Shown in pieces: positions 12,310-16,055 of a stretch of DNA of 64,000 bases (positions are counted from its first letter, which is position 1; each line of letters begins with the position of its first letter). Position numbers and translations under genes: made by a program. The stretch covers positions 372,001 to 436,000 of the forward strand of contig NZ_LJAK01000001.1 in the NCBI RefSeq assembly GCF_001420005.1, given 5' to 3'. The DNA is from Loktanella sp. 3ANDIMAR09 (GTDB lineage Bacteria; Pseudomonadota; Alphaproteobacteria; Rhodobacterales; Rhodobacteraceae). The notes beneath the pieces were generated by a model that worked only from the letters and a program-made list of their open reading frames with translations, ran no database searches and was not told the origin of the DNA.

Positions 12310-13185
12310 ATGCGCGCCTTGATCGTTGCCGCCCTTGCCCTGCTGGTGGGGTGCCAGTCCGTCGGGGATGCGCAGGCTGAACCGACCGTGACCTACCTGG
12401 GCCGCTATGTCTGGACCGATAGCGACCCGGCGTTTGGCGGCCTGTCCGGGCTGGAACTGAACGCGGACGGCACGCGGATCTGGGCGCAGGGGGACCGCGG
12501 TGTTCTGTGGACCGGTTCCGTGACGCGCGACGGGGATCAGGTGACCGGCATCACGACGGACCCGCCACGCGTGCTGCGCATTTCGACCGGAGAGCCGGTT
12601 TCCGGTGCGACGGCCGACCCCGAGGGACTGGCCCTGTCCGCGGATGGCACGCTGTTCGTCTCATTCGAAGGGCTGGCCCGTGTCGCGGCCTACCCCGACC
12701 TGGACGGTCCTGCGGTGCGTGTGCCGCGCCCTGACATGTTCAGGGGGCTACAGAACAATTCAGCGCTCGAAGCGCTTGCGATTGGCCCCGATGGTGCGCT
12801 TTATACCTTGCCAGAGCGGTCGGGTGGCACGCATCGGCCTTTTCCGGTTTATCGCTATGCCGGTGGGGTCTGGACCACGGTATTCGACATCGCGCGCACG
12901 GATGCGTTCCTGCCCGTGGGCGCGGATATCGGGCCTGATGGTCTGCTGTATCTGCTGGAACGGGATTTCACCGGTTTCGGGTTTCGGTCGCGCGTGCGCA
13001 GGTTGCCGCTGGACGGCAGCGCATCGGAACTGCTGTTGCAGACGCGCACCGGGACGCATGACAACCTCGAAGGGATCAGCGTCTGGCGCGATGACGCAGG
13101 CGATATCCGCCTGACGATGGTGTCCGACGACAATTTTCGCTGGTTCCAGACGACCGAGATCGTGGAATACCGCGTCAGCGATTGA
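12310..13185 (+). CDS. Phytase-like esterase lipoprotein
   Basis: 291 residues from the ATG at 12310, one base after the mepA stop. The signal peptide ends in LLVGC, a lipobox. The rest reads as a beta-propeller of the esterase-like activity of phytase family: [57 protein letters not shown] and a C-terminal [16 protein letters not shown]. Relatives are secreted and often uncharacterised. A phosphatase or esterase role is family-based, not proven. Confidence 0.75.
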
Positions 13186-13217
13186 CGCAAGCCGTCCGTG
13201 CGGCTAACCGGGCGCGT

Positions 13218-13235
13218 CCCCGCGATCTTGCGGGG
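13218..13235 (+). promoter_or_regulatory. Hairpin in the yhhQ leader
   Basis: A 6-bp GC stem (CCCCGC/GCGGGG) with a 6-base loop lies in the 86-base gap before the queuosine-precursor transporter. A regulatory RNA for preQ1 would be logical here, but I cannot match the sequence to a known preQ1 riboswitch class. It could also be a weak terminator for the preceding gene. Confidence 0.22.
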
Positions 13236-13271
13236 CCAAGTGCCGCACCCTTGCCAAAACGGAAAACCGCT

Positions 13272-13898
13272 ATGACCCGTATTCTACCTGGCGTGATCGC
13301 CATGGCCGCCATTGTCGTGGCCTCGAACATCCTCGTGCAATTCCTGATCCTTGACGGCCTGCTGACCTGGGGTGCGTTCACCTATCCGCTGGCGTTCCTC
13401 GTGACTGACCTGATGAACCGCATCTATGGCGTATCCGCCGCGCGCCGCGTCGTTTTCGTGGGCCTGATCGTGGGTATCATCTGTTCGCTGATCGGCAGCC
13501 AGATCCAGCTGGAATTCGGTCCTGCCGTGCCGATCCGGGTCGCTATTGCATCCGCCACCGCATTCGGTGTGGCGCAATTGCTGGATATCACCGTGTTCAA
13601 CAAGCTGCGCCTGGGCGTGTGGTGGGTGGCCCCGCTGGGATCGACGCTGGTGTCGTCGGTCGTGGACACGGCCATCTTCTTTTCCATCGCGTTTGCAGCC
13701 GTGTTCAACCCGCTCTCCACCGCGGCCGCAGACCAGATCATCTGGGCACAGGACGCTGTGCCGTTCCTGAATGCCGGTCCGCTGGTGCCGCTGTGGGTGT
13801 CGCTCGCCGTGGCCGATTGGGGGGTCAAGATCGCCGTCGCGCTGGTCGCGCTGATCCCATTCCGCCTGATTGTTCGCCGAGTCACAGCCACGTCATAA
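13272..13898 (+). CDS. Queuosine precursor transporter (YhhQ/QPTR family)
   Basis: 208 residues from the ATG at 13272; a TTG-led extension to 13182 would overlap the previous gene and adds no family sequence. About six membrane helices. Seen: PLAFLVTDLMNRIYG near residue 40, a charged turn typical of the VUT_1 / YhhQ family, then GSTLVSSVVDTAIFF and VADWGVKIAVAL. The family imports preQ0/preQ1 or queuine for the queuosine modification of tRNA. Together with mnmH and arfB nearby this is another translation-linked gene, though probably by chance. Confidence 0.88.
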   Translation: MTRILPGVIAMAAIVVASNILVQFLILDGLLTWGAFTYPLAFLVTDLMNRIYGVSAARRVVFVGLIVGIICSLIGSQIQLEFGPAVPIRVAIASATAFGVAQLLDITVFNKLRLGVWWVAPLGSTLVSSVVDTAIFFSIAFAAVFNPLSTAAADQIIWAQDAVPFLNAGPLVPLWVSLAVADWGVKIAVALVALIPFRLIVRRVTATS

Positions 13899-13987
13899 AT
13901 TCAGTATCTGGTGTGATTAGGGTTTGACAGCCGCGATATCTGCGGCAACCCTCAACACAGGCGAAACATTTGAAAGGAGGTGATCCA

Positions 13988-14044
13988 GTGCATCATGAAG
14001 TTCTGGAGAAGTGTGTCGGGACAGCTTGGGGGGTTCTGATCTAG
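13988..14044 (+). CDS. Mini-ORF (18 codons, GTG) behind an ideal ribosome binding site
   Basis: GTG at 13988 lies 7 bases after GGAGG in a 14-base perfect Shine-Dalgarno match and runs 18 codons to TAG at 14042-14044. A second overlapping frame begins at ATG 13995 and runs 14 codons to TGA at 14037-14039. Both end within or just before the segment 14044-14054 that can act as an antiterminator arm. I read it as a possible leader peptide; the peptide itself resembles nothing I know. A run of six G (14028-14033) lies where the two frames overlap. Confidence 0.3.
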   Translation: MHHEVLEKCVGTAWGVLI

Positions 14045-14119
14045 GGCAGCCCTTAGGTCTGTAGCACCACAGGTGGGTGACCCTATGGGTCCCTAACCGA
14101 CCCACCTCCGATATTCAGG

Positions 14120-14154
14120 AAAGGGCTGTCCCATCGCCGGGGCAGCCCTTTTTT
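14120..14154 (+). terminator. Strong intrinsic terminator before arfB
   Basis: A 13-bp stem (AAAGGGCTGTCCC with GGGGCAGCCCTTT, one T-G wobble), a 6-base loop and a T-run at 14149-14154. It lies 124 bases before the arfB start, on the same strand. Its 3' arm is duplicated upstream at 14044-14054. Confidence 0.75.
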
Positions 14155-14156
14155 AC

Positions 14157-14210
14157 GCCGAATGCCCTGCATTCGGCGGGTGGGGGAAAGAGATTGGCCC
14201 TCGGCCAATC
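14157..14210. repeat. Two adjacent perfect short palindromes
   Basis: GCCGAATGC/GCATTCGGC (9-bp stem, 3-base loop, 14157-14177) and GATTGGCC/GGCCAATC (8-bp stem, 3-base loop, 14192-14210) follow the terminator directly. Both have tight 3-base loops. They resemble small dispersed palindromic elements, but only a genome-wide search can show whether they are repeated. Confidence 0.45.
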
Positions 14211-14277
14211 GCGGCCCCACTCGGTTCCAGACTGGGTGCCAGTGTCAAATGCGCCCCGGCCTGCTATGTATCCCCAC

Positions 14278-14706
14278 ATGGCCGACGATCTACGCATCAC
14301 CGACAGCATCACCCTGCAAGGCTGGGAAATGACCGAGGCATTCACCCGTGCCTCGGGTCCCGGCGGGCAGAACGTGAACAAGGTCAGCACGGCGGTCGAA
14401 TTGCGGTTCGAGGCGGCGCGCTCACCCTCCTTGCCCGATCCGGTCAAGGCGCGGCTTAAGCGGCTGGCGGGGCGGCGATGGACATCTGACGGGGCGCTGG
14501 TGCTGTTCGTGCAGGACACAAGGTCCCAGGCCCGCAACCGCGAGCTGGCGCGCGAGAGGCTGGCCGAACTGGTCGAACAGGCCACGCAAAAACCCAAACG
14601 CCGCGTGCCGACGAAACCGACCTATGGATCGGTGAAGCGGCGGCTGAAGGCCAAGAAGGTGCGCGGAGAGGTGAAGTCCCTGCGCGGCAATGTCACGCCC
14701 GACTGA
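14278..14706 (+). CDS. arfB: Alternative ribosome-rescue factor ArfB (YaeJ type)
   Basis: Peptidyl-tRNA hydrolase that enters stalled ribosomes lacking a stop codon. 142 residues from the ATG at 14278. The catalytic motif GPGGQNVNK is near residue 29-37, and the C-terminal tail is rich in Lys/Arg (TQKPKRRVPTKPTYGSVKRR, then KAKKVRGEVK), as needed to sit in the empty mRNA channel. The short length and basic tail separate it from class I release factors. The upstream DNA holds a terminator and an odd leader (13917-14154), suggesting attenuation control. Confidence 0.93.
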   Translation: MADDLRITDSITLQGWEMTEAFTRASGPGGQNVNKVSTAVELRFEAARSPSLPDPVKARLKRLAGRRWTSDGALVLFVQDTRSQARNRELARERLAELVEQATQKPKRRVPTKPTYGSVKRRLKAKKVRGEVKSLRGNVTPD

Positions 14707-14761
14707 CGGAACGCGGATGCCCCTGACGCTGTTGGACAGCAACATCAGACAGGAGACGACC

Positions 14762-14899
14762 GTGAAACAAAAATGGATCTACGCCCTCATCCCCCTCGGC
14801 TTTGTCGCCATCATCGCATCCATGTTGATCGGTGGAGAGGTTGTGCAGGAGACGACGGACAGCCCCGTGGGCGAGATTGTTGAGGGGCAGGGGGAGTGA
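14762..14899 (+). CDS. Small single-span membrane protein, unknown function
   Basis: 45 residues from a GTG at 14762, preceded by AGGAGACGACC. One hydrophobic helix (about residues 6-25: YALIPLGFVAIIASMLIGG) after a Lys-rich start, then an acidic tail of about 18 residues. The open frame extends upstream to 14690 but overlaps the arfB end. I do not recognise the family; the clear binding site and typical inner-membrane topology support it as real. Confidence 0.5.
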   Translation: MKQKWIYALIPLGFVAIIASMLIGGEVVQETTDSPVGEIVEGQGE

Positions 14900-15048
14900 G
14901 TTGCCAAGTCTCTGCCGACTCACCAGTCGAAGGTAAAAGTAATAAGAAAGGAGTCCTTTAGTTGGTCTAGCGGCGGATAAATGCGAAACAGTTTAAGGGT
15001 AGACTTGATGCGCCCAAGAGAATTGTGAAGACGAATATTTACGAACCA

Positions 15049-16055
15049 TCACCACTCTGTAAATTCTAGAATGTTGTTGAAAGGTAGCAATTCAATGGTT
15101 GGGCCAAGCAGCTGTTTCCAGTATTTCTCCCGATCTTGTGCATGATCTCGCTCAACGACACGTATTGCGCGATCTCCAACATGTTGGCGTATAGTTTTAT
15201 TCAAATGTTCATCTGCACCAGAATAGCCAAAGACTATCAATGCGTCAGATTCTTTGATGGCTTTCGGCAAGTGATCCCAATATAACTGTAGGACTTTTGA
15301 ACTTTGAATCACATTTGGTTTCAATGCTCCATTTGTAAGCACAATATGACTTCTAACTGTTCCTTCCTGTTCTTCTAGTTGGTGCCGCATGATTTTAGTC
15401 GCGGCACCTTGTGCCCATCCAAAAATAGAGGAGATCCATGAAGGTGCATATAAAACGCTTGGTTTTGTAGGCGTTTCCTTGAGAGGTTTTGTTCCGAAAA
15501 GCCAAGTTTTTTGGTGTAGCCATCGAGTAAAGTTCCATCAAAACCGTTGCATAGCTTTATTTTTCTATCGCCGATTAATCTCTCTTCATTGAAGGGTTGA
15601 TACAGCAAAGTGTCATAATTCAGTGTTGCCACATGAGACTTCGAATCAGAAATAAAAATTACAAGATGGTCTATAAAATCAGACCACAGTGGATTTGACG
15701 TAAAATTCGCATCAAATTGATGGAAGTATTTAGCGACTAGATAGGTATATTTTTGTAGTGCATCTGGAAATTTCATTGCATCATTAGTCAGCCAGTGCTG
15801 AAGGCTGTCATCGTTTACTGCGACACGTAGAATCCGACACGCCATCAATGCGAGTTGGGTACCTAAGAGTTGATCTTCACTAGTTGGACCATCTGAATCA
15901 ACTCCTTCTATAGCTGACGAAACAAGCTTCTTTTGCGCATCGTTGAGAGCCTCTTTGTCTCGCCATACTTCACGCATCGCTGTTGGCAACTGAAAGAAGT
16001 CATTGTCTAGCGCTCGACCAAGGCCATTTCCGAAAATAATCGTACTGCGTGTCAA
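15049..16055 (-). pseudogene. SIR2-like (DUF4917-type) protein gene, frameshifted
   Basis: Two reading frames together make one protein of about 335 residues. The N-terminal part (16055-15375) starts with a TTG and has IIFGNGLGRALD, the nucleotide-binding GNG segment, then TLNYDTLLY and MHLHGS, where SIR2-like proteins carry the NYD motif and catalytic His. The C-terminal part continues in the -1 frame (HQLEEQEGTVRSHIVLTN, then ALIVFGYSGADEHL, typical of the family's end). The switch fits the loss of one A in the run AAAA (plus strand TTTT, 15393-15396). The DNA is AT-rich (two lines counted by hand: 35% and 37% GC) against a high-GC background, so it was probably acquired. Related proteins deplete NAD in phage defence. 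It lies 47 bases behind pncB on the same strand. Confidence 0.68.

What the first reader, a model, noticed from the sequence alone, without database searches (positions are those of the whole stretch)
13917..14277. Translation-sensing RNA switch candidate upstream of the ribosome-rescue gene arfB
Seen in the sequence: AAAGGAGGTGATCC (13973-13986) is a perfect 14-base complement of the 16S rRNA 3' tail. It is followed by an 18-codon GTG frame and an overlapping 14-codon ATG frame. Immediately at their ends lies GGGCAGCCCTT (14044-14054), identical to the 3' arm of a 13-bp terminator (14120-14154). It can therefore pair with the terminator's 5' arm and act as an antiterminator. The RNA also contains its own anti-SD, CACCTCC (14103-14109), which can cover the SD or fold into a nested hairpin (14071-14107). 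If ribosomes translate the mini-ORF, the antiterminator arm is covered and the terminator forms. If free ribosomes are scarce, arfB is transcribed. That this senses ribosome supply is inference, but the logic fits a rescue factor.
Basis: partly seen in the sequence, partly recalled or inferred. Interest (0 to 1): 0.82.

Follow-up and report, generated by a model that had tools for sequence, protein, structure and literature searches.

The report
Self-masking small RNA with mini-gene
The sequence in front of the ribosome-rescue gene is most likely a free-standing small RNA, related to one known from Caulobacter, that carries a very short reading frame and folds over its own ribosome-binding site; it probably does not control the rescue gene, which is only its usual neighbour in one bacterial family.

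Summary
The arfB-switch reading is not supported. The element is a divergent relative of Rfam RF01867 (CC2171, Caulobacter sRNA; 45.6 bits, gathering score 75). It looks like a separate unit with a conserved -35 and its own terminator. In 105 Rhodobacteraceae genomes with a strong copy, yhhQ is next upstream in 101, arfB next downstream in only 81; outside the family arfB is within 2.5 kb in 0 of 27 sampled genomes with both. GGGCAGCCCTT belongs to a covarying hairpin holding the stop codon; its pairing with the terminator shows no covariation. Two points stand out. The mini-ORF is 18-35 codons in 66 of 67 family loci and 29 of 29 from other families (shuffles average 15.0 and 5.9), although its last codons drift freely. 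And the ORF is folded into a covarying structure whose 3' strand covers the SD in Rhodobacteraceae, the first codons elsewhere. Best reading: a small self-masked RNA with a translated ORF.

The parts
13272..13898 (+). yhhQ-like queuosine precursor transporter gene, the usual upstream neighbour in Rhodobacteraceae
   Evidence: TIGR00697 92.8 bits, cut-off 50.95; next upstream of the element in 101 of 105 family genomes
13924..13929 (+). TTGACA, conserved -35 of the element's own promoter; a weak -10 would be AACCCT 13947-13952
   Evidence: TTG at -55..-46 of the SD in 65 of 67 family loci, TTGAC in 45 of 67; the consensus promoter scan found nothing here and no family -10 stands out, so the -10 is not shown
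13973..13986 (+). 14-nt perfect complement of the 16S rRNA 3' tail (Shine-Dalgarno)
   Evidence: (-23.9 kcal/mol); columns AGGAGGTG invariant in 58 sequences
13988..14044 (+). 18-codon mini-ORF, GTG start, TAG stop
   Evidence: 18 codons in 61 of 67 family loci; frame test; pN/pS 0.66 in codons 2-12, not significant against column-order shuffles of a 25-sequence sample (17 of 100 as low), 0.98 in codons 13-18
13984..14007 (+). start-codon hairpin (consensus helix 2)
   Evidence: 93.3% of cells paired; alignment-free test negative, 95 of 300 permutations
   Evidence: 50 distinct stems in 67 loci, four-base CANN loop in 42; 34 of 67 beat 95% of their own shuffles singly; partner permutations 0 of 200, z -7.0
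14097..14109 (+). 3' strand CCGACCCACCTCC: pairs with ORF codons 9-11 and, by its CACCTCC, with the SD
   Evidence: helix 3 z -5.8, within-class z -4.3; helix 1 98.7% paired, z -2.4; SD core mean unpaired falls from 0.53 (RNA to 14100) to 0.15 (RNA to 14109)
14119..14154 (+). intrinsic terminator of the RNA
   Evidence: covarying stem in 58 sequences; partner permutations z -17.6; missed by the simple terminator scan
14278..14706 (+). arfB, downstream neighbour, probably with its own promoter
   Evidence: NF006718 183.1 bits; TA at -15..-10 in 33 of 61 relatives

Best explanation
A free-standing RNA of about 190 nt, transcribed from its own promoter behind yhhQ and ended by its own terminator, related to the Caulobacter sRNA family RF01867 (CC2171). 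It carries one very short ORF with a full-length 16S-complementary Shine-Dalgarno. The finished RNA folds so that its 3' strand covers the SD and the ORF, with the stop codon inside a tetraloop hairpin. Inferred mechanism: ribosomes load on the nascent RNA, or must win the SD from the 3' strand. Translation of a fixed short length then opens the fold, so the RNA exists in a ribosome-bound open form and a closed form, and that choice sets its stability or the exposure of its 3' strand. Shown here, by comparison only: a unit separate from arfB, constrained ORF length, covarying fold. Inferred: transcription of exactly this unit, translation in the cell, switching, and any target. arfB is a neighbour.
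For: RF01867 is the only Rfam match in 13000-15500, 45.6 bits, and the only match up to E 1 in 18 of 18 other family loci scanned (23.5-46 bits). A model built from the family (R1) matches the element in 29 of 29 loci from elsewhere in the class that RF01867 had picked (E up to 0.0034). Conserved -35; terminator found by script in 58 of 67 family and 24 of 29 other loci. Neighbours. Fold: 51 pairs, 87.5% of cells paired against 80.8% shuffled, 0 of 500; 38.9-58.5% when slid. Outside the family the ORF start x pre-terminator pairing has z -8.3, 0 of 200. ORF length: sd 0.9 codons in 67 family loci and 3.5 in 29 others; shuffles 18.1 and 19.0 on average. Stop codon kept as TAG 29, TGA 21, TAA 11 of 67. 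A relative, MH_s33, is listed in Mesorhizobium, where 34 of 35 predicted non-riboswitch sRNAs (all but MH_s6) had RNA-seq products (PMC5596092, passages).
Against: All RF01867 scores seen in Rhodobacteraceae (window and 18 loci) are below the gathering score of 75. The family -10 is not a consensus -10 and the promoter scan found none. No expression data for this genome. The start hairpin shows no covariation in the alignment-free test and the SD:anti-SD helix hardly any, because one side is fixed. The 51-pair structure was derived from nearly the same sequences it was counted on; default RNAalifold scoring keeps 19 pairs. Schrader et al. (PMC4117421, passages) say the ncRNA regions they saw in Caulobacter are not translated, and that two earlier ncRNAs are, without naming them in what I could see. 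The permutation tests do not remove relatedness fully. Most of the class sample has no match: RF01867 49 of 240.
Confidence: 0.72

Rival explanations
1. One reading: a leader of arfB in which translation of the mini-ORF decides between an antiterminator (14044-14054 with the terminator 5' arm) and the terminator.
For: In the window the two stretches can pair over 11 bp. arfB is next downstream in 81 of 105 family genomes and in 20 of 51 loci starts within about 40 nt of the terminator. Two Hyphomonas contigs also have the element near arfB, though on the other strand. A uORF-dependent attenuator suited to sense ribosome shortage is published for a DUF1127 gene of Sinorhizobium (PMC12218461, passages).
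Against: No covariation of the antiterminator pairing. The stretch is part of a local stop-codon hairpin. The element persists without arfB. arfB has a -10-like signal of its own.
Confidence: 0.06
2. mRNA of a functional microprotein: the peptide is the product that matters and the fold only tunes its synthesis.
For: Frame and length are constrained in both groups sampled. Family core LERGVGT recurs. pN/pS 0.66 in codons 2-12 against 1.02 and 1.18 in the other frames.
Against: Codons 13-18 drift at pN/pS 0.98. The low ratio of codons 2-12 is not significant against column-order shuffles (17 of 100, 25-sequence sample). Peptides from other families of the class share little beyond the first residues. 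The same nucleotides are in covarying helices.
Confidence: 0.18
3. An ordinary trans-acting sRNA: the anti-SD strand CCCACCTCC pairs with the Shine-Dalgarno of target mRNAs, and the ORF is a by-product.
For: C-rich anti-SD-like seeds are used by other alphaproteobacterial sRNAs (SisA-D in Caulobacter, PMC12559287, passages). RF01867 is filed as an sRNA.
Against: By eye in the 29 loci outside the family the strand before the terminator is not an anti-SD; many carry ACAATGG-like strands, and there the pairing is with their own ORF start. ORF length constraint is unexplained.
Confidence: 0.12
4. A ribosome decoy: the RNA mainly binds and holds 30S subunits through the 14-nt complement.
For: Eight bases of the site are invariant in 58 sequences and the site pairs with the 16S tail at -23.9 kcal/mol.
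Against: In the complete window RNA the site is mostly paired (SD core mean unpaired 0.15), which suits a gated site rather than an open decoy. Abundance unknown.
Confidence: 0.08

Closest known systems
Rfam RF01867, CC2171, Caulobacter sRNA
   Same: Same order of parts: GAAAGGAGGUGAUCCAGUG near the 5' end, long-range pairing to the strand before the terminator, terminator (alignment). RF01867 and the window's own family model pick the same element in 29 of 29 loci outside the family.
   Different: Scores below gathering in the window and 18 of 18 family loci scanned. The masking strand is an anti-SD (CACCTCC) here; outside the family it pairs with the first codons. The published family is filed as an sRNA; a conserved ORF is not mentioned in what I could read.
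duf1127 uORF attenuator of Sinorhizobium meliloti (PMC12218461, passages seen)
   Same: Short ORF whose translation and masking govern an RNA decision; its authors call it suited to sense ribosome shortage.
   Different: It controls the next gene by premature termination thought to involve Rho. This element ends in a strong intrinsic terminator and has no fixed next gene.
rnTrpL / peTrpL dual-function attenuator sRNA of S. meliloti (PMC10117765, passages seen)
   Same: A terminated small RNA that also carries a translated mini-ORF (14 aa).
   Different: That ORF is leaderless and belongs to the trp attenuator; this one has an extended SD and no downstream operon in common.
Pos19 of Rhodobacter sphaeroides (PMC5036791, search listing and start of abstract only)
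   Same: A coding small RNA in the same family of bacteria.
   Different: 219 nt, in the RpoE regulon; no sequence comparison was made here.

Membership tests
RF01867 (CC2171) | covariance model score at or above gathering (75 bits) | tested here: not met
   45.6 bits in the window; 23.5-46 bits in 18 family loci. So it is reported as a divergent relative, not as a member by Rfam's rule
RF01867 (CC2171) | common ancestry shown by significant end-to-end match | tested here: met
   E 9.8e-8, model 1-159 of 159; reciprocal family model hits 29 of 29 loci chosen by RF01867, though part of every score comes from the shared SD motif
RF01867 (CC2171) | stand-alone sRNA transcript | not testable with these tools
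   own -35 and terminator by comparison; no RNA data for this genome
Ribosome-dependent transcription attenuator of the downstream gene | mutually exclusive antiterminator that pairs with the terminator arm | tested here: not met
   no covariation
Ribosome-dependent transcription attenuator of the downstream gene | conserved linkage to the regulated gene | tested here: not met
   next downstream in 81 of 105 in the family, within 2.5 kb in 0 of 27 sampled genomes outside; two Hyphomonas contigs have it near but on the other strand
Dual-function (coding) small RNA | conserved reading frame | tested here: met
   frame 0 against frames +1, +2 and shuffles
Dual-function (coding) small RNA | translation shown and a base-pairing role shown | not testable with these tools
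   needs ribosome profiling and target tests

The most novel reading that the evidence does not exclude
RF01867 and its Rhodobacteraceae relatives form an RNA family spread through the Alphaproteobacteria whose ORF is translated for the act and not for the product: a fixed-length ribosome run, started at a full 14-nt 16S complement, that unlocks a fold in which the RNA's own 3' strand masks the initiation site. It would be a free-standing ribosome-responsive RNA, a sensor of initiation capacity that acts in trans or through its own stability, with no gene in cis.
Probability: 0.25. Interest if true: 0.8.

Novelty: new variant of a known kind. Interest (0 to 1): 0.5.

Why it matters
An RNA filed as a Caulobacter sRNA turns out, by comparison, to have relatives in most Rhodobacteraceae sampled (111 of 120 at E 1e-3, 105 strong) and in 49 of 240 genomes of the class sample, to carry a reading frame held to a narrow length, and to fold over its own initiation site. 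If ribosome profiling bears this out, Alphaproteobacteria have a dedicated small RNA whose state reports translation initiation, which would make a question about ribosome-supply sensing directly testable in Caulobacter or Rhodobacter. It also removes a tempting but probably wrong link to arfB.

Tried and rejected
Rejected: the antiterminator, arfB control as the conserved role, and the 14-codon ATG frame as a conserved second ORF (frame +1: 28 of 67 in 18-35 codons, sd 15.9). Left open: the nested hairpin 14071-14107 as an alternative to SD masking. Same-locus pairing is better than partners drawn within a sequence class (2 of 500 permutations as good, z -3.0; reversed-sequence control z -0.9), but on the alignment only 54.4% of cells pair and shifted registers score as well. 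Simple scans for promoter and terminator found nothing; the -35 and terminator rest on comparison. arfB start positions were picked by script and some are a nearby TTG instead of ATG, so the 20 of 51 count is approximate. Rows dropped: 105 of the 111 R1 genomes were kept for the neighbour count (six weak or short ones dropped: G013, G036, G054, G069, G084, G108; the weak match of G069 lies between its yhhQ and arfB and may be a remnant). Terminator-based tests used 58 of 67 family and 24 of 29 other loci: the script gave no terminator for L011, L041, L072, L077, L083, L118, L124 and a spurious one for L022, L028, L062, L074, L128, L136, L138. L001, L089, L096 and L102 were left out of the family ORF and promoter counts; L102, not of the family, is among the 61, and the window itself is not. 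One row (ORF 3' half outside the family) is void because of an empty stretch. The 51-pair structure comes, whose alignment shares 48 of 58 rows with A1. Model R1 was built from loci that partly come from the genomes it was then run on. Literature searched; none of the listings or passages I saw describes this element in Rhodobacteraceae or its ORF.

Full report
What was checked. The finding's letters are correct at the stated coordinates. The window comes from a Loktanella-like genome: its ArfB is identical to that of Loktanella sp. DSM 29012. The flanking genes are a queuosine precursor transporter (TIGR00697) and ArfB (NF006718).

What it is. The only Rfam match in 13000-15500 is RF01867, CC2171, over the full model at 45.6 bits and E 9.8e-8, below the gathering score of 75. 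Of 18 other Rhodobacteraceae loci scanned, 18 give RF01867 as their only match up to E 1, at 23.5 to 46 bits. RF01867 itself finds 49 of 240 class genomes at E 1e-3 or better, 7 over the cut-off, and of the 14 named control genomes only Caulobacter vibrioides. The SD motif with GTG (up to 1 mismatch) is in 107 of 149 family genomes; AAAGGAGGTGATCCNRTGTC is in 29 of 230 class genomes, with 0 backward control hits among the rows shown. A covariance model of the family form, R1, matches 111 of 120 family genomes, 105 of them at E 6.3e-8 or better, and finds the element in 29 of 29 loci outside the family that RF01867 had picked. The 29 share the SD motif, which carries part of every score.

A separate unit. 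Between yhhQ and the SD a -35 is conserved: TTG in 65 of 67 family loci at -55 to -46, TTGAC in 45 of 67; outside the family TTG in 22 of 29 at the same place and -10-like hexamers in 20 of 29 at -35 to -26. The family -10 is not consensus: -10-like hexamers in 8-9 of 67 at -30 to -16. A terminator stem with T-run was called by script in 58 of 67 family and 24 of 29 other loci (spurious calls removed), and its arms covary.

Not an arfB device. In 105 family genomes with a strong element, yhhQ is next upstream in 101 and arfB next downstream in 81; in the other 24 arfB is 0.4-2.5 kb downstream (7), elsewhere on the contig (7), on another contig (9) or not found (1). Five family genomes keep yhhQ followed by arfB without a strong element, one of them (G069) with a weak match in between. 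Outside the family 27 sampled genomes have both, and arfB is not within 2.5 kb in any of them; 22 of the 27 have an element with E 1e-5 or better. An exception outside that sample: in two Hyphomonas contigs, fetched through arfB, R1 finds the element 0.85-0.93 kb from arfB on the opposite strand. In the 29 loci outside the family neither arfB nor yhhQ is found in the fetched flanks of up to about 1.5 kb, and the predicted neighbour ORFs differ and are often on the opposite strand (ORF picks only). Of 43 arfB-selected loci without a close copy of the motif, R1 finds the element in 10. Upstream of arfB, TA starts at -15 to -10 from the start codon in 33 of 61 loci, against 4 to 13 in non-overlapping windows, and TANNNT in 18 against 0 to 4, which suggests a promoter and a nearly leaderless mRNA. 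Against this, the terminator lies within about 40 nt of the arfB start in 20 of 51 loci, so read-through may still add to arfB expression.

The antiterminator. In the window the stretch 14044-14054 can pair with the terminator arm over 11 bp. Over relatives the pairing behaves as chance: own energy -11.52 against -11.80 for partners from other loci, 184 of 200 permutations as good; 60.7% of cells paired against 61.0% in shuffles, 328 of 500 as high. The same stretch is the loop and 3' arm of a hairpin that holds the stop codon: 50 distinct stems in 67 loci, four-base CANN loops in 42; mean score 13.31 against 8.41 in shuffles, 34 of 67 loci beating 95% of their own shuffles singly; no permutation of partners reached the own pairing (0 of 200).

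The fold. On 58 family sequences (A1) a consensus of 51 pairs keeps 87.5% of cells paired against 80.8% in shuffles, with 0 of 500 shuffles reaching any of five measures; sliding the partner gives 38.9-58.5%. This structure came from RNAalifold with RIBOSUM scoring on an alignment that shares 48 of 58 rows with A1, so it was derived from nearly the same sequences; with default scoring RNAalifold keeps only four pairs of helix 3, a small SD hairpin and the terminator. In the 51-pair structure the SD pairs with the internal anti-SD (98.7% of cells, variation on one side only), codons 9-11 pair with the strand just before the anti-SD, the 3' part of the ORF pairs with the stretch after the stop hairpin (z -5.1), and the start codon sits in a small hairpin whose alignment-free test is negative (95 of 300). 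Outside the family the first codons pair with the strand before the terminator (z -8.3 and -5.7), while the SD shows no own-partner preference there (197 of 200 permutations as good). In the window the SD core is about half open in RNA up to 14100 and 15% open once 14109 is reached. These are equilibrium calculations on an assumed 5' end.

The reading frame. From the SD-set start codon the frame is 18-35 codons in 66 of 67 family loci (sd 0.9) and 29 of 29 others (sd 3.5); shuffles give 15.0 and 5.9 on average, at most 24 and 12; frames +1 and +2 give 28 and 20 of 67, and 5 and 8 of 29. Family stop codons are TAG 29, TGA 21, TAA 11 of 67 at the nominal place. Yet codons 13-18 change freely (pN/pS 0.98) and codons 2-12 only mildly less than neutral (0.66; on a sample of 25 sequences 17 of 100 column-order shuffles as low). 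So the frame and its length are kept better than the peptide.

Mechanism. The evidence fits an RNA with a full-length 16S-complementary initiation site that is covered by the RNA's own 3' strand, so ribosome binding and fold compete. That this competition is used as a sensor, that it affects stability or frees the 3' strand, and that translation occurs in the cell are inferences.

Known or new. By Rfam's rule it is not a member of RF01867, but it is clearly related. The papers I saw that name the family state no function (passages or listings). Schrader et al. report that two earlier Caulobacter ncRNAs are translated, unnamed in the passages seen (PMC4117421); this RNA may be one. Interest rests on the constrained ORF inside a covarying self-masking fold, not on arfB.

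Noticed in passing
window 14157-14179: An inverted repeat right behind the terminator differs in sequence from that of the near relative L037 while keeping its pairing (by eye); it may be a second stem or a fast-changing spacer.
   Followed up: no
L089 889-1075 and L096 963-1152: In two Hyphomonas contigs the element lies about 0.85-0.93 kb from arfB, on the opposite strand.
   Followed up: partly
window 13272-14706: yhhQ and arfB stay neighbours in five family genomes that lack a strong element (G110, G108, G036, G013, G069), so the gene pair does not depend on the RNA; G069 has a weak R1 match in between.
   Followed up: partly
L117, L118, L120 downstream of the element: Three loci outside the family carry what looks, from its first residues, like a YaiI/YqxD (DUF188) gene behind the element (name recalled, no family search).
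   Followed up: no
window 15049-16055, minus strand: Two overlapping reading frames (15049-15390 and 15375-16055) look like one split gene in a stretch that reads A+T-richer.
   Followed up: no
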